A DNA stretch of 36,213 nt from an uncultured Ignavibacteriota bacterium (GTDB taxonomy: Bacteria > Bacteroidota > Ignavibacteria > UBA10030 > UBA8401), in assembly GCA_903958625.1 (NCBI GenBank), contig CAJBTU010000368.1:1-36213 (forward strand). Reading direction: 5' to 3'. The notes below the pieces were generated by a model. The model had not been told where the DNA came from, searched no databases, and was given only the letters and a program-made list of their open reading frames with translations. Position numbers and translations under genes: made by a program. The stretch's first letter is position 1; each line of letters begins with the position of its first letter. This document shows positions 15,896 to 27,600 of the stretch, piece by piece.

Positions 15896-16923
15896 ACATA
15901 ACTTTCGCAACATATCAATCGTTATCCCTACTGCATGGCGGTCCCCGCGTGCAGATCCTGCAGACGAAGAATGAATTGGAAAAGCTCGGCGTAAAGGTCT
16001 CGCTCTTCCAGCCATGGGAACATTATGACCGGAGATCATGCGATCTTGTTCATCTGTTCTCTGCAAACCTGGGAACATTTCATTTAGCAAGCGTAATGAA
16101 TAATTTCAACATCCCTTTCGTAAGCTCGTCGATCTTTTTTACCGAACATTCACCGGCGTATATCCGATCTATCCTGGGGATATCAAAAACTCTGAAGCGA
16201 TTCAAATCGGGTATCTGGACAAGTTATGATTACACACAGCAGATCTGCAATTGGTCAAAAGCAGTACTGCCCAATACGGCCGATGAAGGGAAACTGCTGA
16301 GTGATGGACTCGGAATCCCGTTCAAAAAAATATCAGTCGTGCCCAACGGTGTTGAAGCACGCTTTGAGTTTGGTGATCCAGCATTATTCAAGAAGAAATA
16401 CGGCATTGAAAACTTCATCCTCAATGTCGGTCATGTCGGTCCGGCACGGAAGAATGTGCTTCAACTTATCAGAGCATTAAAGGAAATCGGACATCAGGCC
16501 GTCATCATCGGCAAAGTTTCAGAAACTCCGGAAGGAAAGCAATGCCTGGAAGAAGCAAGACAGGCGAAGAACATTCTCATCATCGACGGCCTCGAGAACG
16601 GCTCGGAAATGCTTGCCTCGGCATATGCGGCCTGTAAAGTTTTCGCTCTCCCTTCTCTTTTTGAAACGCCGGGAATTGCAGCGCTTGAAGCAGGTCTCGC
16701 AGGAGCCAAAATCGTGATCACGCCGTACGGCGGGACAAGAGAATATTTCGGTTCACATGCCGAGTATGTGGAACCTCGCTCCGTTGAATCAATCAAGAAT
16801 GGCATTATGAAAGCTTTGAATACTCAAAATACTTCGACTCTGAGAGAACATATTAAAAAGGAATTCCTTTGGAGCGCCGTAGCAGAAAAAACACTCGCTG
16901 TTTATAATCAAGTTTTGCAATGA
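15892..16923 (+). CDS. Glycosyltransferase family 4 (GT-B)
   Basis: 343-residue GT4 enzyme. It has HGGPRVQILQTKNELEKLG at the N-terminus (acceptor side), VVPNGVE near residue 150, ILNVGHVGPARKNV with donor-binding basic residues, and the EX7E motif in LFETPGIAALEAG followed by TPYGGTREYFG. Full length for the family and no membrane segment. It is linked by ATGA overlaps both to the divergent deacetylase upstream and the GT9 gene downstream, so the three products are probably made together. Expected role is transfer of a hexose or related sugar during LPS/capsule-type glycan assembly. Confidence 0.87.
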   Translation: MNITFATYQSLSLLHGGPRVQILQTKNELEKLGVKVSLFQPWEHYDRRSCDLVHLFSANLGTFHLASVMNNFNIPFVSSSIFFTEHSPAYIRSILGISKTLKRFKSGIWTSYDYTQQICNWSKAVLPNTADEGKLLSDGLGIPFKKISVVPNGVEARFEFGDPALFKKKYGIENFILNVGHVGPARKNVLQLIRALKEIGHQAVIIGKVSETPEGKQCLEEARQAKNILIIDGLENGSEMLASAYAACKVFALPSLFETPGIAALEAGLAGAKIVITPYGGTREYFGSHAEYVEPRSVESIKNGIMKALNTQNTSTLREHIKKEFLWSAVAEKTLAVYNQVLQ

Positions 16924-17939
16924 CGCCTCGCCGAATTCTCATAATCCGCCCAGACCGGATCGGTGATGTTGTGCTCACAACGCCCCTTATCCGCGCTGTT
17001 AAACGATCCTTCCCTGATTCATTTGTCGGAGTGATGGTGAATTCCGTGTCCGGTGTCCTGCTCCGGAATAATCCGAACATTGACCTTCTCATCACCGACG
17101 ATCCGAACGGAAAAGATTCGGGAAAGAGAGGATTTTGGGATCAAGTGGTGCGTCTGCGTTCGCTAAAGTTCGACACAGGGCTTATGCCGCTTCCGCGGGA
17201 ACGGCATGCCTGGATGATGCTGCTTGCAGGGATAGGGAAAAGAATCGGTGTCGGCGGAAAGATCTATCAGGTCCTCACGGGTACGAAGACGGTGAGCAGA
17301 AATAAATATATTCCTCTACGTCATGAAGCGGATTATGTAATGGATCTTGGCAGAAAGATCGGCGTAACGGATGATGACCTTTCACCGGAATTGTTCGTCA
17401 GTCCGGAAGAGAGTGAACATGCCAGAAATTTTTTCGTCCAGCGGGGCCTCGATCCTGATCAACCAATCATCGGAATCAATCCAAGTTCAAATAATTCCGT
17501 ACCAAACTGGAAGCCCGAACAATATGTGCGTTTGTGCGAAAAACTTTCCGGACGATACCAATTGTTCGTGAATATCGGGATCTCAAATCCCGCGATGGAA
17601 CGGTTATTCGACCCTTTCAAAACGAATCACATTGTCTATACAGGAAGTGATTTGCGTGAACTGATTGCCCTCTGCAGCCGGCTTTCCGTTCTCGTCTCAT
17701 CAAGCACCGGTACTCAGCACATCGCTGCGGCTTTGAAAGTACCAACGGTAACAATGTTCTGTCCGCTGCCGGCCTGTTCATTCAAATTATGGGGTTCTCT
17801 TGGAAACAGATCGGAAGTAATCGAACCGCCTGAAGGATATTGCGGGTTACGCTGTCCTGTTGATCCAAAAATTTGTACCTTTGACGAGATTTCTGTCGAT
17901 ACAGTTCTTTCGCGCATACACATGCTCTTCGATAGGTGA
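16920..17939 (+). CDS. Glycosyltransferase family 9 (heptosyltransferase-like)
   Basis: 339-residue GT9 enzyme. Its N-terminus IIRPDRIGDVVLTTPLI has the conserved Gly-Asp pair whose Asp corresponds to the proposed catalytic base of WaaC-type heptosyltransferases. The C-terminal half has IGINPSSNNSVPNWKPEQY, SSSTGTQHIAAALKVPTV and a Cys-containing tail CGLRCPVDPKIC. Such enzymes add heptose or related sugars to lipid A-core or other glycans in the cytoplasm. Last gene of the run that begins at 9153. Whether ADP-heptose is the donor is not evident from sequence. Confidence 0.87.
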   Translation: MTPRRILIIRPDRIGDVVLTTPLIRAVKRSFPDSFVGVMVNSVSGVLLRNNPNIDLLITDDPNGKDSGKRGFWDQVVRLRSLKFDTGLMPLPRERHAWMMLLAGIGKRIGVGGKIYQVLTGTKTVSRNKYIPLRHEADYVMDLGRKIGVTDDDLSPELFVSPEESEHARNFFVQRGLDPDQPIIGINPSSNNSVPNWKPEQYVRLCEKLSGRYQLFVNIGISNPAMERLFDPFKTNHIVYTGSDLRELIALCSRLSVLVSSSTGTQHIAAALKVPTVTMFCPLPACSFKLWGSLGNRSEVIEPPEGYCGLRCPVDPKICTFDEISVDTVLSRIHMLFDR

Positions 17940-18767: not shown

Positions 18768-19922
18768 TTATTTTTTTGCCGCCACTCGTTTCACTTCTGC
18801 GACAATAATCTTCTGATCGATCATTGAAATGCATTCCAAATTATACGGACATTGTTTTTTCCAGCAGGGTGCACAGAACAACCCTTCGGGGATCAGTTTG
18901 ATGCCCCGGTCGTATAGATCGATCTCGTTCCAGCAGCTTAAACCGAACCATGCAATGACATGTTTTTTCAATCCGATGGCGACATGCATGCCGAAAGAAT
19001 CGCCGGTGATGATCACATCGCAGATATTCTCGTAACAGATACCACGTCGCACTCCTTCGGTTGTTGGCGTGCTTAGCACATTCTCTCCCACCCTCTTCAC
19101 GATCTCTGCGTTCCGTTCTGTATCTTCCGGACCTCCCACGAGTACCAGACGGATGCCTTTCATTGAGTGCATGGTTTCAATCAACTGAACGTGCTGCTCG
19201 ATCGTCATTTTTTTATTCTGATAGAGATATGAACAGCCGGTATTGAAACCCACAACAAGTTTTGCATCATTCAACCGGTGTTCCGACCGGTAGTTCTCAC
19301 AAAACATCTGCTCTTCTGCCGACAATGGGAGCACGTATTCATCCCTCTTGAATTTCAATTTCATCGACTCCTGCAGGATCTGCGTACCGGAAAGTTTATT
19401 TTTATGGAACTTCAGATCGTCATCCAGTCCAAGGATATAACTGTATTCCGCTTCTTTATTCAACGGGACGATCTTGCCGTTTTTATTCAGGCCAAATCCG
19501 ATCTTCTCTTTTGCTTTCAGCGTATTCCCGAATGCGCACGACCGTTTCGTTTTGTCCGTCTGATAGACAATATCAAATTCCATTTGCTGAAGAATCAGCC
19601 AACTCTCCGGTTCCCATACATAAACGGCATCCAGCAAGAGATTGTTATCAAGCAAACGGTATGCATTCTTCAATGTGATCCACGAGATATGGCTGTCCGG
19701 ATATTTTCGCTTTATCGCAGGAAGCATCGCCGTAGTTTGTACGACAGCCCCCATCGCATCCAGATTGACAATCAAAATCTTCTTTCCGGTCGGCTGATGA
19801 TCGACGCACTTTTTGTAACATGTGGTGCCCGGAAAGCAAGGTTTGTAACCTGTAAAGTGTTTGCAGTCAGGGATGACCATTTTTTTTGACGGTTTTTTCT
19901 TTTGAACGATTTTTTTTGCCAT
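18768..19922 (-). CDS. GT9-family protein with Cys-rich N-terminus and altered catalytic position
   Basis: 384-residue GT9-like protein. Unlike its neighbours it has about 45 extra N-terminal residues, including basic stretches and four cysteines (C20, C29, C35, C39) in a CKHFTGYKPC context. The nucleotide-sugar fold begins ILIVNLDAMGAVVQTTAML. The Asp after Gly that serves as proposed base in WaaC-type enzymes is Ala here (codon GCT). The C-terminal half keeps VVGFNTGCSY, LVGGPEDTERN, TGDSFGMHVA and a Cys tail CAPCWKKQCPYNLEC. I chose the ATG at 19922, one base after the upstream stop. It is cotranscribed with the GT9 gene at 19924-20952. It may use a different mechanism, or serve a non-catalytic or radical/metal-related role; unknown. 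Confidence 0.8.
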   Translation of the reverse strand: MAKKIVQKKKPSKKMVIPDCKHFTGYKPCFPGTTCYKKCVDHQPTGKKILIVNLDAMGAVVQTTAMLPAIKRKYPDSHISWITLKNAYRLLDNNLLLDAVYVWEPESWLILQQMEFDIVYQTDKTKRSCAFGNTLKAKEKIGFGLNKNGKIVPLNKEAEYSYILGLDDDLKFHKNKLSGTQILQESMKLKFKRDEYVLPLSAEEQMFCENYRSEHRLNDAKLVVGFNTGCSYLYQNKKMTIEQHVQLIETMHSMKGIRLVLVGGPEDTERNAEIVKRVGENVLSTPTTEGVRRGICYENICDVIITGDSFGMHVAIGLKKHVIAWFGLSCWNEIDLYDRGIKLIPEGLFCAPCWKKQCPYNLECISMIDQKIIVAEVKRVAAKK

Positions 19923-19923
19923 A

Positions 19924-20952
19924 CTATTTAACGTTAATGTTTTTAAGTTGTTGAAAGGCGGTATACACTGCATCCACCGAAAGGTCTTTCATGCACACAT
20001 TACCAATCGGACAATCGGTAAGGTTGCATTCCAAACAATCCAGCGTTTCATTCCGCACCCAAAGGTTATTCTTTCCGTAAGGACCTTGCAAATGCGGGTC
20101 TGTCGGACCATAGATCCCAAGCGTCGGCACACCAAGAGAAGCCGCAATGTGCATCGGACCTGAATCGTTACTGATGAGAGAGGAACACATTTTCAGGAAA
20201 GCACCCATTTCTTTCAAGGTTGTTTTCGGAATTATTTCACTCCTCTGCTTCATCTGTGACCGTATCTTCTGAACATCATCAAACTCTCCGGGTCCCCAAA
20301 AAAAAAGGACTTTCTGCCTGTCTTCAAGAATAATACGGTCAGATAAACGGGCATACGAACCGGTATCCCACTTTTTTGTATACCAACCGCCGCCGGGATT
20401 AACGCCAACGATATTATCCGTTGAAATACCCTGTTCTTTGAACCATTCTCCGGCCATCTGCAGATCGCTCCCGCCAAGGGGAAAAACAGGCCGTGAATCC
20501 GTTATGGCAATATTAAAATGCCGCAACACATCCAAATTGAAGTCAACATTATGTACTTCACCGCCGCGCGGTGGAACATGGATATTGTAAGCATAGGACC
20601 GTCCGCGAAAAGGAAATCCTACCCGGTATTTTGCTCCGCTCCAACGGGTGATGAAAGCCGTCCGCGGATTGCAAAAGAGATCGATGACAACATCATACTT
20701 TCTTCTGCGAACCCTGTTGATCACGGATAACGTTGAATCGTTTCTTTTGTCAAACGTGATCACCTCGCGCACAAACGGATTCCCTGAAACAACCTGTCCG
20801 GCAAATTTTTCGCATAAAAAGTCAATGCTGAGATGCGGGTATTGTTGCCTTAAATTGTGTATCACAGGGGTTGCCAGCAGTACGTCACCGATGGCCCGCG
20901 GTTTGACAAGAAGAACCGTTTTAAAAGAATTAAAATCGAGAGTTTTCATCAT
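19924..20952 (-). CDS. Glycosyltransferase family 9 (heptosyltransferase-like)
   Basis: 342-residue canonical GT9 enzyme with VLLVKPRAIGDVLLATPVI (intact Gly-Asp), VGVNPGGGWYTKKW, SNDSGPMHIAASLGVPTLG and GPTDPHLQGPYG, followed by the CLECNLTDCPIGNVC tail found in many family members. Full length. Transfers a heptose-type sugar to an LPS-like core in the cytoplasm by family analogy. First gene of a two-gene minus-strand operon whose second gene starts one base after this stop. ATG at 20952 or the adjacent ATG at 20949 are both possible. Upstream on the minus strand a TTG-N20-TATTTTAA pattern could serve as promoter. Divergent from the T9SS cargo gene at 21126. Confidence 0.9.
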   Translation of the reverse strand: MMKTLDFNSFKTVLLVKPRAIGDVLLATPVIHNLRQQYPHLSIDFLCEKFAGQVVSGNPFVREVITFDKRNDSTLSVINRVRRRKYDVVIDLFCNPRTAFITRWSGAKYRVGFPFRGRSYAYNIHVPPRGGEVHNVDFNLDVLRHFNIAITDSRPVFPLGGSDLQMAGEWFKEQGISTDNIVGVNPGGGWYTKKWDTGSYARLSDRIILEDRQKVLFFWGPGEFDDVQKIRSQMKQRSEIIPKTTLKEMGAFLKMCSSLISNDSGPMHIAASLGVPTLGIYGPTDPHLQGPYGKNNLWVRNETLDCLECNLTDCPIGNVCMKDLSVDAVYTAFQQLKNINVK

Positions 20953-21125: not shown

Positions 21126-23000
21126 ATGAAAAAAGTACTACCACTGGTTTTTGTGCTGAGCATTCTGTTCGGAGTTTTGTATTCACAAACTGCTTTGAAA
21201 CAGTCAAAACACTACACCTGGCCGTTAAAATCGACCACGACGTACGATTCCGTTCTTGTTGGTCTTGAGGGAGTGCGCTGTGTTGCAGTCGGCGACTTGA
21301 ATAATGACGGGAAGTCGGAAATAGTCGCGACAAACTATGCCGATCTTGGACATGTCCATGTTTTTTCTCCGGCCGGCAAAGATACGTTTGAATTGGTATG
21401 GAGCTCTCCCCGTGTTGAATCGAACGGCGGATTAAATGGCGGAGGTTCGACACCAAGAAGCGTGTTGATTGGGGACTTAGATAAAGACGGTAAGAATGAA
21501 ATAATCTATGAAAGCAAAGGTAACGGAGTATATGTTTTCGAATGGGACGGTAAAACAGGATATAATTTTGGGACAAAGCCGTCACAATTAATCAGTCCGA
21601 CCAGCTGCCCGGGATTTCCTGTAACAACCGGAGCTTCCTACGCAGAAAAAATGGCAATTTCAGATGTGGATAATGATGGACAGCAGGAATTGGTGTTTGT
21701 TTTCAGAGCAGCGTTGCCGGCCGAACAAAAATATATGATCATTAAAGCTGTCGGCGATTACGCTACCGACGAACCGGGATTTACTTCTTTTGAAATGCCA
21801 TTTATGGCGGCACGCCCTGACCTTGCAGCATGGGGCCTTAGCGGAGGAAGCGCCTGGAGCATGATGCCGGCAAATCTGGATGGAGCAGGCATGAAAGAAA
21901 TTGTCATTCAGGCATTCAGCAATAACAATGTTTCCATTATACGCAATGAAGGCGGCGTGTGGAAATTGGCTGACGAGACAAACGGAAAGCAAAATTTAAA
22001 TTTATCGGCGAATGATGGTGTCAGTTATTTTGGCGGTCTCGTTACGGATATTGATAAGGATGGAAGAGACGAAGTTTATATGCCGACCAATGTTTATACT
22101 GCCCCGGATACACCTGCGGTCGTCCGAGCCATTTATTATGATGCAAATTCTTCGGTCAGTGAAATTGATTCAGCAAAAAATACTTTTCGCATCGATTTTT
22201 TCGACCTGGTAGGTAAAGGCGGAATGTGGGGATATGGATATGGTGATATCGATGGTAATGGTAAGCCGAACATTTACTTTACTACCGGAACATTAGGAGC
22301 GGCTATCGTTACAGCAGAATTCCAGGGCGGAGTGAAAAGCAATCCTGCAAACTGGAAAACAAGTGTCCTTTGGAAAGGCGATACAACAAATTATGCATTA
22401 TCAATAAGAGATTCTTTGGGAAAGGTCGATACTGTTTCCAGAACAATTGAATTCTATTTCCCGTCAAAAATGTACGCTCAAAAGTCAGATTTTGACAAAA
22501 ATGGATTGGAAGACATCATCACCGGATATCAGCCCTGGTATTATGGCTCCGGAACGACTCACATTGTCCGGACAACCAAATACACATGGAATTCGACCAC
22601 AAAACAATATGATACAACAAAATATGACGTGCCAAATCCAAAACGGCTTAGCTTTGTTGTCTTAGAGAAATCAACATCGAGCGGTGTGGAAGAACGGAAT
22701 CTTACGTTTATAACACCGAATGATTATGAACTGAATCAGAATTTCCCGAACCCGTTCAATCCTTCAACGACGGTTAACTTTGTCCTTCCGTTGAACAAGA
22801 CGGTTTCATTCCGCATTTATGATATGCTTGGGAAAGAGGTCGTGACCCTTATCAACAATGAAGCAATGGCAAAAGGCTCTCACAATGTTACATGGAATGG
22901 AATTGATAAGAATGGTAAATCAGTTGCCTCCGGTGCTTACATTGGCAAGATGAATGCCGGAACCGTTGAAAAGACAATCAAAATGATGCTGGTGAAATAA
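21126..23000 (+). CDS. T9SS-sorted seven-repeat FG-GAP/DxDxDG propeller protein
   Basis: 624-residue secreted protein: signal peptide MKKVLPLVFVLSILFGVLYSQ, then seven DxDxDGxxE-type loops beginning at residues 57, 117, 180, 250, 308, 374 and 455 (for example DLNNDGKSE, DLDKDGKNE, DVDNDGQQE, DIDKDGRDE). Then comes a C-terminal T9SS type A domain, YELNQNFPNPFNPST (534-548) to the end VEKTIKMMLVK. Loop 4 (NLDGAGMKE) has lost acidic ligands. Seven loops fit an integrin-alpha/FG-GAP-like seven-bladed propeller binding Ca2+. Ligand unknown. Single-gene unit ended by a strong terminator at 23022-23055. A related protein is encoded at 31455. Confidence 0.88.
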   Translation: MKKVLPLVFVLSILFGVLYSQTALKQSKHYTWPLKSTTTYDSVLVGLEGVRCVAVGDLNNDGKSEIVATNYADLGHVHVFSPAGKDTFELVWSSPRVESNGGLNGGGSTPRSVLIGDLDKDGKNEIIYESKGNGVYVFEWDGKTGYNFGTKPSQLISPTSCPGFPVTTGASYAEKMAISDVDNDGQQELVFVFRAALPAEQKYMIIKAVGDYATDEPGFTSFEMPFMAARPDLAAWGLSGGSAWSMMPANLDGAGMKEIVIQAFSNNNVSIIRNEGGVWKLADETNGKQNLNLSANDGVSYFGGLVTDIDKDGRDEVYMPTNVYTAPDTPAVVRAIYYDANSSVSEIDSAKNTFRIDFFDLVGKGGMWGYGYGDIDGNGKPNIYFTTGTLGAAIVTAEFQGGVKSNPANWKTSVLWKGDTTNYALSIRDSLGKVDTVSRTIEFYFPSKMYAQKSDFDKNGLEDIITGYQPWYYGSGTTHIVRTTKYTWNSTTKQYDTTKYDVPNPKRLSFVVLEKSTSSGVEERNLTFITPNDYELNQNFPNPFNPSTTVNFVLPLNKTVSFRIYDMLGKEVVTLINNEAMAKGSHNVTWNGIDKNGKSVASGAYIGKMNAGTVEKTIKMMLVK

Positions 23001-23582: not shown

Positions 23583-24617
23583 TTAGTAGGTTACGCTCAC
23601 CGAAACATATTGCACATCATTCAAACGTCCCTGATCCGCAAAGGCATAATCGACTTTTATTCCATTGAGATTCGTTATCTGGAAATACAATCCCACTCCC
23701 CACGTTAATCCCTGTTCCGAATTATCCTTGAATAAAGAATTATATCCGACGCGGGCAAAGAACATTTCGTCGTATGCCAGTTCAACACCGGAGTTCACGT
23801 ATTCCACGTTGTCATTCGGATGGGTTGCATCAACCGATGCCGTAGCACGGATCACATCCATATTCAACACATCCATCGCTAACCCGATGCGGAACTGCAG
23901 CGGGATATCGTATGCTTCTGTTTTATAGATAGATTGTACGTTTTGCGGACCTTGTCCCTGCTCACCGTTCGGGAAATTATTGAAAGAAATATCCTGTCCG
24001 TCAAGTCTCATCTTTGTTCCGAAGTTTGATATGCTCGCACCGATCTTCAATCCGTTGAATGTTGTCGTGTAGATCGTCCCGATATCAAACGCAAAACCGG
24101 AAGCAGACATGTTCCAGATTCCCTCCCGGATATATTTTGCCGTAAATCCAATGGAAAATCTGTCTGTTAACGATCGCGCGAATGAAAGTCCCATAGCAAA
24201 CGCGCTATAGTTCCAGCGCCGTCCATCTCCTTCGGGATTGATCTCTGTCCGAACGATTTCCTCAGGCATCTGCAGTGAAGTAACGGAAAGACCTAACGTC
24301 CCCACACCGTCGATCGTTAATCCGCTGGCGACATAATTATAATCGATATCTGCCAGCCATTGCGTATGATTGAACGATGCTTCCCCCGGTGTTTTCATCC
24401 GTGCCAGCGAACCCGGATTCCAATAAATGGAATACACATCTCCATCCATTGCAGCAGCGCTTCCCCCCATTGCAACGGAACGGGCACCGGCGCCGATCTT
24501 TAAGAACTGCGCCACCGTCGTTCCCACCTTCGTTGTGGTTCTGCTGATCTGTGCATGAGTCACATTGAACGAGGAGATCACAAGTAGTACGACCGAAAAA
24601 CGAATAACAAATTTCAT
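23583..24617 (-). CDS. PorV/PorQ-family outer-membrane protein
   Basis: 344-residue exported FadL-like barrel; of the three PorV/PorQ-like proteins in the window this has the clearest PorV signature: AQFLKIGAGARSVAMGGSAAA then YSIYWNPGSLARM, with strands to a terminal VSVSVTY. The signal peptide begins MKFVIRFSVVLLVISSF and ends THAQ. I chose the ATG at 24617, preceded by GGAG nine bases upstream and lying outside the upstream gene, over a start at 24653 inside it. PorV shuttles T9SS cargo from the translocon to the attachment machinery. As last gene after a sorted 1,201-residue protein it may be a dedicated partner of that protein; inference from position. Confidence 0.85.
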   Translation of the reverse strand: MKFVIRFSVVLLVISSFNVTHAQISRTTTKVGTTVAQFLKIGAGARSVAMGGSAAAMDGDVYSIYWNPGSLARMKTPGEASFNHTQWLADIDYNYVASGLTIDGVGTLGLSVTSLQMPEEIVRTEINPEGDGRRWNYSAFAMGLSFARSLTDRFSIGFTAKYIREGIWNMSASGFAFDIGTIYTTTFNGLKIGASISNFGTKMRLDGQDISFNNFPNGEQGQGPQNVQSIYKTEAYDIPLQFRIGLAMDVLNMDVIRATASVDATHPNDNVEYVNSGVELAYDEMFFARVGYNSLFKDNSEQGLTWGVGLYFQITNLNGIKVDYAFADQGRLNDVQYVSVSVTY

Positions 24618-24636
24618 GAGCTGTTTCTCCAAATTT

Positions 24637-27600
24637 TTATTTAATGATTCCAAGACGACCGATCTTCGTTCCGCCGGTGGGTGTCTCTACATGATAAATA
24701 TATACCCCGTACCCTATACGGGCACTTTCCGACGAGAGTAGATCCCATGTCAAATACGCGGTATTATCATTTTTGCGCAGTGTCTGCACTAGATCACCGC
24801 TGATGGTGTAGATGCGGATGGTGCATTCTTTCGGAAGATTCCTGAACTGGATCGCCCGGTCTCCGCGCAAATCGGACCTGTTGGATGGAAGCTCAAACGC
24901 ACTATTGATGACATACGGATTGGGAACAACATACACGGTTTGCAGCGCATTATCGCCTGCCGCGGCATCATAATGTATGGCCTTAGTTGTGAAATCATAT
25001 TCGTCGATCGCAGCAAAAGGTTTGCGTGTTTTGGCATTCAGGATGGTTCCGACAGGAATTTTTGCCTCTACAGAATCGACCGATTTACTCATTAAAATAT
25101 CCATGAAAATCGTATTGGCAGTCGGAGGGATAATAAGCAAAAGATCTTCCCCTATATCCCATCGTCCTGTTTTCCTTTTTGTCTTCGTACTTGTTTTTTC
25201 TACGATGCGCATCGTGTATTTTGTGGTATCGGATAGATTTTCCACTTTGAATGGAACCTTTACCCACGTTGAACCGCTTGTCGGCAAGATAGAATCGGCA
25301 GGCATCGTAAAGTTACCGTTGGCATCAGTATCCGACAATGCTTTCGTAAACGTCACTCGAATATCGTGAGGCAGCAATTTTTTCGGTAAACTGGAATAAC
25401 CATTGACGACGCTGTGAACAACATTGGTCAGATTATTGGTCTGGTAACCGCTTTTGGGTTGATCGATCATCAAAGTATCATCAACGGCATACACCCGAAT
25501 TCCGTCGAAGACCGGATTGGAATCATCCGACTTGTAAAATCCGCTGTTTGCAACCGGATAATATTGGTACGCTACGGTGTAGGTCTTCGTCCTCGATAAA
25601 ATTCCGGTCGTTGTTGCGCGAAGTCTCCCGTTTGCGGAGTCAATGATGATCACCGATGAAGAGATCAGCGGAGCCGTAGTATCGCTGCCGTTAAATATTT
25701 TCACACTTGCCGGAACGATATTTTTGTTCTGCACATTCACGAACAGGTTCTCGTTACCGATGAACTGTTCCACCGCAGGAGTTCTCCTTAAAACGCTGTA
25801 AGTGAGAATTGTATCTGTTCCGGACTTTGTCTTGGCAAAATTTATTTTATACGCTCCATCTTTCATCGTCTGTTCATTCAATACTTTCAAATGAATTGAT
25901 GCCGTACTATTTCCCTTACTGTGAATAAGCGTCATACCGTTCTGAAGTTCTGTCTTTGTACTGACGAGTCCGTTGGCTGCAGCGTTAGGCACTACGGCAA
26001 CCGTATTCACATCGAACTTGAATTCCTGAGTGACGGCATCACGCTGTATGATCGATTGACTTTCCGAAGGCGGAAGCTGTAAACTGTCGTCACCGTGATC
26101 GAACGAAACGACGGCGTAATAATATGTGAGACCATTGGTCACGGTAGAATCGACATACTCGTGGCGCAGACCTGTCGTATCGCTTGGTTCACCCATGTAA
26201 TATTTAATGTAGCGTCCTCTATATTCAACCGGCATAAATCCGCCGGGATATTTATCCTGCTCGTTTTTTGACCAGGGACGATGCCACTGTGCTGATTTTC
26301 GTGCCTGCTGATCATATAACGCCTTACCAAGGAACGGATACCCATTACCGTCTGTTACGGAGAAAACATCTTTGAACGAATAGTCCTGGCTTCGATAGAT
26401 CTTATATCCTTCAAAATCCTTTTTAGCGGAGAACGGATCTGTAGCACTTTCTGCCGCATTATCCCAATACAATGTAACGCGGCTATTCCCTGCGACCGCT
26501 GTCACTTTGGGTTTCGGCGGCGGCTGAGCAAAACGATAATTTGCCGCTAACACCAATTGAGCAGTTTCCGAATTCAACAAAAGATCTTTAAGATCCTGTC
26601 CCATTAACAAAGCGATTGAAAAACGTTCGCGATGACCAGGATCCATTTCAAACGGCCCGGAGCCGTATAAAAATATATAATCACCAACGGGATTATTCAT
26701 CCCTGTCGTGTAGTACAAATTCGCCAATGCAGCGGTATCGAATTGAGCAACGATACTATTATACATCAGATTATCATTTTTGGGTCTATTGTTGCCCCCA
26801 AAGCCAAGCGACCAAAAACTTCTCAAACCGATCTGATCGGATTCATTGACATCGCGAAAACCAAAATTCGGTTCAGAACCGAGCCACGATCCGTCGGAGC
26901 CGATCAACTGATCCGGTACGCCGTTCCCCTCTCCAAAATCAAACGTGCCGAAAATGCCATCAACTCCAAGATCATCTTTTTCAATGTCCCAGTCTCCGTC
27001 TTCGTCACCCGACCAGCGCGGTTTTGGCGCACCATATAAGGCAATATATTTTGTCGTGTCATAAATACCGGTGGTGAGCGGAATATTTACTCCATCGATA
27101 TACGTTCCTTTATCGTTGTATGGATTCTCGTCTTTAATACCGTCATCATCGTTATCAATGCCGTCGATGCTGTTGTTCGGGCTCTCTAAAAATTTATAGC
27201 CGAAATATCCCGGGGCAATTGTTGAAATGTCGCTTTTTCCGTCCGGATCCCAGCTATACACCATGTTTCTCGACAGCGGAGTGGTCAATTTATTATCCTG
27301 TACAAGACGCTTATCAAACTCGGCAAGACCAACGGCACGTGAAGGGATAAACTCTGCAGCATCATCTGCAAAATTATTCGGACCGCCGATGTGCGGATCA
27401 CCGAACATGCCAAAGAATACCTTCGGCAGCATTTTTGATTTCGGATCGTTCTCTGCAGTATAGACAAGGAAGACAATATCCTCAGCCAACGGATTGGCGA
27501 ATTGGAATGTGCGGACCTCTAAATTCAGTCCTAATCCCCGTCGCGTAGGAGAAGTAACAAACGGATAGTAATCAAATTCCGCATCGGTCGAATCATCGAC

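What the first reader, a model, noticed from the sequence alone, without database searches (positions are those of the whole stretch)
19740..19922. GT9-like enzyme whose proposed catalytic Asp is Ala, with added four-Cys N-terminus
All three GT9 proteins in the window can be aligned at their first loop: IGDVVLTTP (16920 gene), IGDVLLATP (19924 gene) and MGAVVQTTA here. The Gly-Asp Asp corresponds to Asp13 of E. coli WaaC, the proposed catalytic base. Here the codon is GCT, one base from GAT. The same protein alone carries C20, C29, C35 and C39. The change of base plus an extra Cys domain suggests a different reaction, a metal site or a pseudoenzyme working with the adjacent GT9.
Basis: partly seen in the sequence, partly recalled or inferred. 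Interest (0 to 1): 0.55.

Follow-up and report, generated by a model that had tools for sequence, protein, structure and literature searches.

The report
Cysteine-rich sugar transferase missing its base
A sugar-transferring enzyme related to those that build bacterial surface lipopolysaccharide has lost, throughout its close bacterial group, the acid thought essential for the reaction, while a second acid close by and eight cysteines stay fixed; this suggests a working enzyme with rearranged chemistry rather than a stray mutation.

Summary
Residue 59 of the 384-aa GT9 protein (18768-19922, minus strand) is Ala (GCT) where WaaC/WaaF have Asp13, and C20/C29/C35/C39 precede the GT domain. It is not a private mutation: the window's clade, 17 distinct sequences, has Ala throughout. 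Across 102 subfamily proteins residue 59 is D 53, N 28, A 18, T 2, S 1; parsimony needs 5 changes between Asp and non-Asp. Asp is kept in 16/16 and 21/21 more distant Cys-GT9s and in 122/123 readable other GT9s of the same loci. In the subfamily, residue 55 in the same loop is Asp or Glu in 102/102, and the K192/D261 equivalents and C-terminal cysteines are kept in 102/102. The partner-pseudoenzyme idea is weakened: all 17 clade members sit beside a canonical GT9, but so do most Asp-bearing ones, and 11 of 26 Asn-bearing ones have none upstream. Best reading: an active Cys-rich GT9 subfamily in which Asp59 became dispensable, perhaps because D/E55 serves as base (inferred, untested). The cysteines look structural, as in TibC's iron finger.

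The parts
18768..19922 (-). Cys-rich GT9 protein, 384 aa, Ala at the Asp13 position
   Evidence: ORF and translation; PF01075 42.1 bits, cut-off 22; fold match to WaaC/WaaF/3tov
19806..19865 (-). N-terminal four-Cys motif C20-x8-C29-x5-C35-x3-C39
   Evidence: codons; four-Cys pattern in 101 of 102 subfamily proteins, the exception L027 having a masked or broken N-terminus
19758..19760 (-). D55, acidic (D or E) in 102 of 102 subfamily proteins; candidate substitute base
   Evidence: base role inferred
19746..19748 (-). Ala59 codon GCT, position of WaaC Asp13
19209..19214 (-). K237-K238, donor-phosphate lysine region (WaaC K192 equivalent, by sequence alignment)
   Evidence: K237 kept in 102 of 102
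18984..19001 (-). D308-S-F-G-M-H313, donor motif (WaaC D261 equivalent at D308)
   Evidence: D308 in 102 of 102, H313 in 99 of 102 of the subfamily; the three exceptions (Phe or Tyr) are L142, L145, L146 from another class
18831..18875 (-). C-terminal four-Cys motif C350-x2-C353-x4-C358-x5-C364
   Evidence: 102 of 102 at each position; codons
19924..20952 (-). adjacent upstream GT9 with canonical Asp (RAIGDV), 1 base before the Cys-GT9 start
   Evidence: PF01075 126.9 bits; an adjacent upstream GT9 in 17 of 17 members of the Ala clade
16920..17939 (+). third GT9 of the window (RPDRIGDV), convergent
   Evidence: PF01075 49.5 bits; a similar convergent RPDRIGDV GT9 is listed in L009, L010, L012-L016

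Best explanation
This is a functional GT-B glycosyltransferase of family GT9, in a Cys-rich subfamily of the window's bacterial class, that most likely adds an ADP-activated sugar (heptose is the likeliest donor) to a lipopolysaccharide-core or surface-glycan acceptor, in the same pathway as the adjacent GT9. Donor binding is conventional (K237, E266, D308, H313). The usual Asp in the first loop is not needed in this subfamily; the invariant acid four residues earlier in the same loop (D/E55) most likely takes the acceptor proton, which let residue 59 drift to Asn and then Ala. The two Cys4 sets most likely bind structural metal (Fe or Zn) and hold the N- and C-termini or an oligomer together. 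Shown: the conservation pattern, clade, fold and gene order. Inferred: activity, donor, acceptor, base role of residue 55, metal binding.
For: Residue 59 is D/N/A/T/S in the subfamily while 55 is acidic in 102 of 102. Of 7 columns at least 90% conserved both in other GT9s and in the next Cys-GT9 group, 59 is the only one the subfamily has given up. In the group where 55 is mostly Gly (19 Gly, 1 Ala, 1 Asp), 59 is Asp in 21 of 21. K237 and D308 are kept in 102 of 102. dN/dS by NG86 is 0.028-0.234 in 7 Ala-clade pairs (dS is above 1 in 5 of the 7, so rough). Columns that fully separate the Ala clade from the Asp proteins include 59, 62, 66 (one face of the first helix) and 180, 184, so the change came with remodelling of its surroundings in that clade. 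The window genome has HldE domain I, KdtA and HldD over cut-off.
Against: In WaaC, D13A costs 4688-fold in specific activity (PMC5713226 passage), and TibC D110A is inactive yet binds donor (PMC4358343 section 11). Asp55 occurs together with Asp59 in 50 subfamily members (and Glu55 with Asp59 in 3), in 13 of 16 next-group proteins and in 18 of 128 other GT9s, so it is not a residue that appears only when Asp59 is lost; it could instead cap the helix or bind phosphate. All Asp losses seen lie within one ancestral acid-55 clade, so the association is phylogenetically a single case. L116 (Ala) and L062 (Ser) lost Asp without the remodelling at 62, 66, 180, 184. No coordinates were available to measure the position of residue 55.
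Confidence: 0.4

Rival explanations
1. Active glycosyltransferase without a protein base: the donor beta-phosphate, a water relay or an already ionised acceptor (phosphate or carboxylate) makes Asp59 unnecessary; Asn forms may shuttle the proton by tautomerisation as in POFUT1.
For: 28 of 102 members have Asn at this place; POFUT1, an inverting enzyme without a base, uses an active-site Asn and the beta-phosphate (PMC8631701 passages). The helix face next to residue 59 is remodelled in the Ala clade.
Against: Ala, Ser and Thr cannot shuttle as Asn does; in POFUT1 the Asn-to-Ala mutant is inactive. About half of the subfamily (53 of 102) keeps Asp, which argues that the acceptor still gives up a proton.
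Confidence: 0.27
2. Pseudoenzyme: a donor-binding but inactive GT9 that regulates, scaffolds or dimerises with the adjacent canonical GT9.
For: 17 of 17 Ala-clade members have a GT9 directly upstream, in the window with a 1-base gap. TibC D110A shows that an Ala form can bind donor and not react. Chains of chloroplast NDH-PSI complexes share the fold (7wff_a: Z 21.8, rmsd 3.5, 299 residues), perhaps a non-enzymatic use of it (not tested).
Against: 39 of 49 Asp-bearing members also have the adjacent upstream GT9, while 11 of 26 Asn members, six of them Kryptonia-type, and one Ala member (L116) have none upstream. Donor and loop residues other than 59 stay fixed, which a mere scaffold would not need. 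But 11 of the 12 genomes of these stand-alone members were tested and each has 8-13 GT9 matches in all, the Cys-GT9 counted, so a partner in trans is not excluded.
Confidence: 0.22
3. Metal-assisted catalysis: the extra Cys4 site carries a metal that replaces the base.
For: The N-terminal four-Cys pattern is kept in 101 of 102; TibC binds iron through four Cys (PMC4358343 passages).
Against: The four Cys are present in 16 of 16 and 21 of 21 proteins of the two more distant Cys-GT9 groups, all with Asp59. They precede strand 48-52, whereas the active loop follows its other end. TibC's iron lies about 20 A from the cleft.
Confidence: 0.05
4. Private mutation or sequencing error.
For: GCT is one base from GAT.
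Against: Ala in 17 of 17 distinct sequences of the clade and once more in L116.
Confidence: 0.01

Closest known systems
E. coli heptosyltransferase I/II (WaaC, WaaF), GT9
   Same: GT-B fold over model residues 47-384 (Z 25.7-27.3 over the WaaC and WaaF rows); K192 and D261 equivalents kept
   Different: Asp13 is Ala; 46-residue N-terminal extension with four Cys; far below the equivalog cut-offs
TibC, bacterial autotransporter heptosyltransferase (BAHT)
   Same: GT9-like catalytic domain (Z 19.5, rmsd 3.3, 269 residues); a four-Cys set towards the C-terminus
   Different: TibC keeps Asp110, has an N-terminal beta-barrel (residues 1-97) and Cys 339/342/358/370; here no beta-barrel is predicted in the 46-residue N-terminus
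Veillonella parvula GT9, 3tov (function not known to me)
   Same: best structural match, Z 32.2, rmsd 2.5 over 320 residues
   Different: has Asp in LGDVILTT; aligned from its residue 4, so it has no such N-terminal extension
Cys-GT9 groups with C..FPGD.PC or C..FRGD.PC.PHK N-termini (my grouping)
   Same: same N-terminal four-Cys architecture (16 of 16 and 21 of 21)
   Different: Asp59 kept in 16 of 16 and 21 of 21; in the second of them residue 55 is mostly Gly and the D308 column is Val in 20 of 21
POFUT1
   Same: inverting enzyme without a conventional base (PMC8631701 passages)
   Different: a different family; an essential Asn takes the place of the base, whereas this clade has Ala

Membership tests
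GT9 (PF01075, heptosyltransferase family) | profile match over the curated cut-off | tested here: met
   42.1 bits against 22
GT9 (PF01075, heptosyltransferase family) | GT-B fold like WaaC/WaaF | tested here: met
   model pLDDT 84.3, pTM 0.84; Z 25.7-32.2 to WaaC, WaaF and 3tov
GT9 (PF01075, heptosyltransferase family) | catalytic Asp in first loop: a feature of characterised members, not of the definition of the sequence family | tested here: not met
   Ala59
GT9 (PF01075, heptosyltransferase family) | donor-site Lys and Asp (K192, D261 of WaaC) and a His five after the Asp | tested here: met
   K237, D308, H313 in the window protein; 102, 102 and 99 of 102 in the subfamily
WaaC / WaaF / WaaQ equivalogs | NCBIfam equivalog cut-offs | tested here: not met
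   40.6 vs 185.3, 42.6 vs 134.6, 30.9 vs 170.2 bits for TIGR02193/02195/02201; 27.8 vs 467 for RfaQ NF007742
TibC/BAHT | N-terminal beta-barrel of about 97 residues | tested here: not met
   46-residue N-terminus with only isolated bridge residues, in a low-confidence part
TibC/BAHT | Fe bound by four Cys | not testable with these tools
   C350/C353/C358/C364 in 102 of 102; metal content needs protein
pseudoenzyme | no catalytic activity | not testable with these tools
   needs an assay

The most novel reading that the evidence does not exclude
Base relocation inside one active-site loop: a GT9 subfamily in which an invariant Asp/Glu four residues before the classical catalytic Asp has taken over proton abstraction, so that the classical position was lost repeatedly (to Asn, Ala, Ser, Thr) while the enzyme stayed active.
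Probability: 0.33. Interest if true: 0.66.

Novelty: new variant of a known kind. Interest (0 to 1): 0.5.

Why it matters
[quoted passage not shown] This subfamily is a natural set of exceptions, with Asp, Asn, Ala, Ser and Thr at the same place in otherwise closely related proteins, so the role of that Asp, and whether a base can move within a loop, can be tested directly. It also gives an eight-Cys GT9 architecture found widely in one bacterial class that none of my eight literature searches brought up.

Tried and rejected
Private mutation or sequencing error: rejected. Cys set as a marker of Asp loss: rejected. Loss of the heptose pathway as the reason for Asp loss: not supported; the window genome has HldE domain I and HldD over cut-off, and so do two genomes with Asn (G155, and G178 with HldE just at its cut-off), while four of four tested Kryptonia-type genomes lack HldD over cut-off and six of six have HldE domain I. 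In G101, home of the separate Ala protein L116, neither is over cut-off, but it is 79% complete.

A named domain for the N-terminal Cys stretch: Pfam gave nothing for two stretches and a below-cut-off laminin-EGF match (E 0.009, 16.6 bits against 21) for the third. AlphaFold did not settle the Cys sets: blocks of ten residues have mean pLDDT 56-63 for 11-40 and 41-58 for 341-370, and no coordinates came back, so Cys distances and the place of D55 were not measured. In the wide alignment C39 reads as another letter in 6 of 102 subfamily rows; a look at these shows the Cys present one column off. In the other-GT9 control, 5 of 128 rows have no letter at column 59, and the single non-Asp row is an ORF near a contig end whose loop reads as unrelated sequence (L010:42-1163), which I take as an artefact. 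Literature: searches listed nothing that I recognised as dealing with Asp-less GT9 proteins or this Cys-GT9 group; I saw listings and the starts of abstracts, passages of four papers and section 11 of PMC4358343. BAHT membership is not claimed; the structure rows show only a shared fold.

Rows dropped before counts: L032 as an ordinary GT9 and L027 (masked letter) from the 23-row alignment A1; identical proteins, and matches under 250 bits, from the 100-protein set; near-copies and, among neighbours, ORFs under 290 aa from the wide set. Proteins were chosen by rank and by my own picking (30 loci, 60 regions, 30 loci, 20 regions), not at random, so the D/N/A shares are not frequencies in nature. 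Adjacency was sought upstream on the same strand only.

Full report
OBSERVATION. The ORF at 18768-19922 (minus strand) codes for 384 residues, starting MAKK one base after the stop codon of the upstream GT9 gene 19924-20952. Residue 59 is Ala, codon GCT at 19746-19748; C20, C29, C35 and C39 precede the catalytic domain. The protein is a GT9 member by Pfam (42.1 bits, cut-off 22), the other two window GT9s scoring 126.9 and 49.5 bits. It is below every heptosyltransferase equivalog cut-off listed. A second Cys set, C350-x2-C353-x4-C358-x5-C364, lies near the C-terminus.

WHICH POSITION IT IS. An AlphaFold model from 23 aligned proteins has pLDDT 84.3 and pTM 0.84, with a well-predicted GT-B core and low confidence in both Cys regions. 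VIA-align gives Z 32.2 to 3tov, 27.3 to WaaF (1psw) and 26.1 to WaaC (2h1f); model residue 47 pairs with residue 1 of WaaC and WaaF, which puts Ala59 on Asp13 and D55 on residue 9 if there is no gap between. The profile alignment to 1psw independently puts the column on its Asp. In WaaC, D13A and D261A lower specific activity 4688-fold and 2027-fold, and K192A 926-fold (PMC5713226 passages). TibC D110A is inactive but still binds ADP-heptose in the crystal (PMC4358343 section 11).

IS IT CONSERVED. A first scan gave 24 loci, 23 of them close relatives and one an ordinary GT9 (L032). Among those 23, the residue is Ala in 13, Asn in 7 and Asp in 3. A profile search of 294 genomes of the class gave matches at E <= 1e-40 in 226; the weaker of these are more distant GT9s. 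One genome of the window's genus (G281, 90% complete) had none, and one of its family (G162) only a fragment. I took loci for the best 30 matches and 60 further regions by rank and choice. Of 100 distinct proteins, 3 of them outgroup, residue 59 is D 53, N 27, A 18, S 1, T 1, while C20, C29 and C35 are kept in 99, C39 in 100, and the four C-terminal Cys in 100. The one exception at the N-terminus is L027, whose start is masked or broken.

TREE. With column 59 left out, the 17 Ala sequences of the window's clade form one group (99/98 support), next to a clade of six Asn sequences (91/87). L116, elsewhere in the tree, has Ala separately; it is one sequence of odd letter make-up from a 79% complete genome. 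All states together need at least 7 changes, Asp against the rest 5 (4-6 over bootstrap trees; 3 forced by well-supported branches alone). So Asp was lost more than once, or lost and regained.

CONTROL GROUPS. Adding more distant relatives and other GT9s (267 sequences) gave: subfamily, 102 proteins, D 53, N 28, A 18, T 2, S 1; second group (C..FPGD.PC), Asp in 16 of 16; third group (C..FRGD.PC.PHK), Asp in 21 of 21; other GT9s, Asp in 122 of the 123 with a letter there, 5 of 128 having none. Residue 55 is acidic in 102 of 102 of the subfamily (90 Asp, 12 Glu), in 14 of 16 of the second group and in 1 of 21 of the third, and it is Asp in 18 of 128 other GT9s. The N-terminal four-Cys pattern is present in 53 of 53 Asp-bearing and 48 of 49 Asp-less subfamily members, the one miss being L027. 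Seven columns are at least 90% one residue both in other GT9s and in the second group; only column 59 falls (to 52%) in the subfamily.

SELECTION AND REMODELLING. Seven Ala-clade pairs have dN/dS 0.028-0.234; seven Asp or Asn pairs 0.027-0.065; dS exceeds 1 in 5 and 4 of these, so the ratios are rough. The columns with no overlap between the 17 Ala and 50 Asp sequences are 59 (A/D), 62 (Q/M), 66 (M/Q), 180 (T/Q) and 184 (Q/A), and 33 and 78. 59, 62 and 66 lie on one face of helix 57-73, and 180 and 184 lie in helix 179-186. That these face the acceptor is inference. L116 (Ala) and L062 (Ser) keep the Asp-type residues at 62, 66, 180 and 184, so not every loss came with this remodelling.

GENE ORDER. 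With a GT9 profile built from the neighbours, an adjacent upstream GT9 is found in 73 of 95 loci with enough room (2 more had too little): Ala clade 17 of 17, L116 no, Asp 39 of 49, Asn 15 of 26, Ser and Thr 1 of 1 each. A second GT9 further upstream is present in 29 of 39 Asp cases but in 1 of 17 Ala and 1 of 15 Asn cases. The eleven Asn members without an adjacent upstream GT9 include six Kryptonia-type proteins (three so named by their records; three placed with them by genus code and tree), of which L024 follows a sensor histidine kinase, and four that follow a deoxynucleoside-kinase-like ORF (only L024 and L104 neighbours were scanned). Eleven of the twelve stand-alone genomes were tested and each has 8-13 GT9 matches in all, so these proteins are not the only GT9 there.

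PATHWAY. The window genome has 8 GT9 matches, HldE domain I at 391 bits (cut-off 345), KdtA (161.7 bits, cut-off 23.9) and HldD at 404 bits (cut-off 274.6), so ADP-L,D-heptose is a plausible donor. Four of four tested Kryptonia-type genomes have HldE domain I but no HldD over cut-off, so the donor may differ there.

INTERPRETATION. Strong constraint on the loop and donor site except at residue 59 argues for an active enzyme in which that Asp is dispensable. The nearest candidate substitute is D/E55. Against it, D55 also accompanies Asp59 in many proteins and the association rests on one ancestral clade. An Asn at the base position has a precedent in POFUT1 (PMC8631701 passages); I found none for Ala. 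Simulations of WaaC with streptomycin place residues 9-11 near the ligand (PMC9068772 passage), which makes position 55 a reasonable cleft residue but proves nothing here. The Cys sets are independent of the Asp loss; TibC's iron finger, about 20 A from the cleft and needed for assembly (PMC4358343 passages), is the best model for their role.

VERDICT. Novelty is that of a new variant within GT9. Activity, base and metal remain to be tested.

Noticed in passing
L072:3147-5174 (-) and L029:5812-7992 (+): In two genomes an Asp-type Cys-GT9 is fused in frame to a homocysteine S-methyltransferase domain (PF02574, 192.1 bits in L072; L029 reads alike but was not scanned).
   Followed up: partly
third Cys-GT9 group, e.g. 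L167:718-1782 (-): The C..FRGD.PC.PHK Cys-GT9 group keeps the first-loop Asp but has Val at the D308 (WaaC D261) column in 20 of 21: the other catalytic residue seems lost there instead.
   Followed up: partly
L031, L104, L105, L106 upstream of the Cys-GT9: A deoxynucleoside-kinase-like gene directly precedes the Asn-type Cys-GT9 in four loci (only L104 scanned with Pfam).
   Followed up: partly
L024:2684-5977 (+): In Kryptonia a large sensor histidine kinase ORF directly precedes the Cys-GT9 gene, which has no adjacent GT9 upstream.
   Followed up: no
model m8ebe22b3d487 against 7wff_a, 9grx_1, 7f9o_6: Chains of plant chloroplast NDH-PSI supercomplexes match the GT9 fold at Z 21.4-21.8, perhaps a GT9-derived structural subunit.
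   Followed up: no
window 21126-23000 and 23583-24653: An FG-GAP protein with a type IX secretion tail and a PorV-like protein lie beside the GT9 pair.
   Followed up: no
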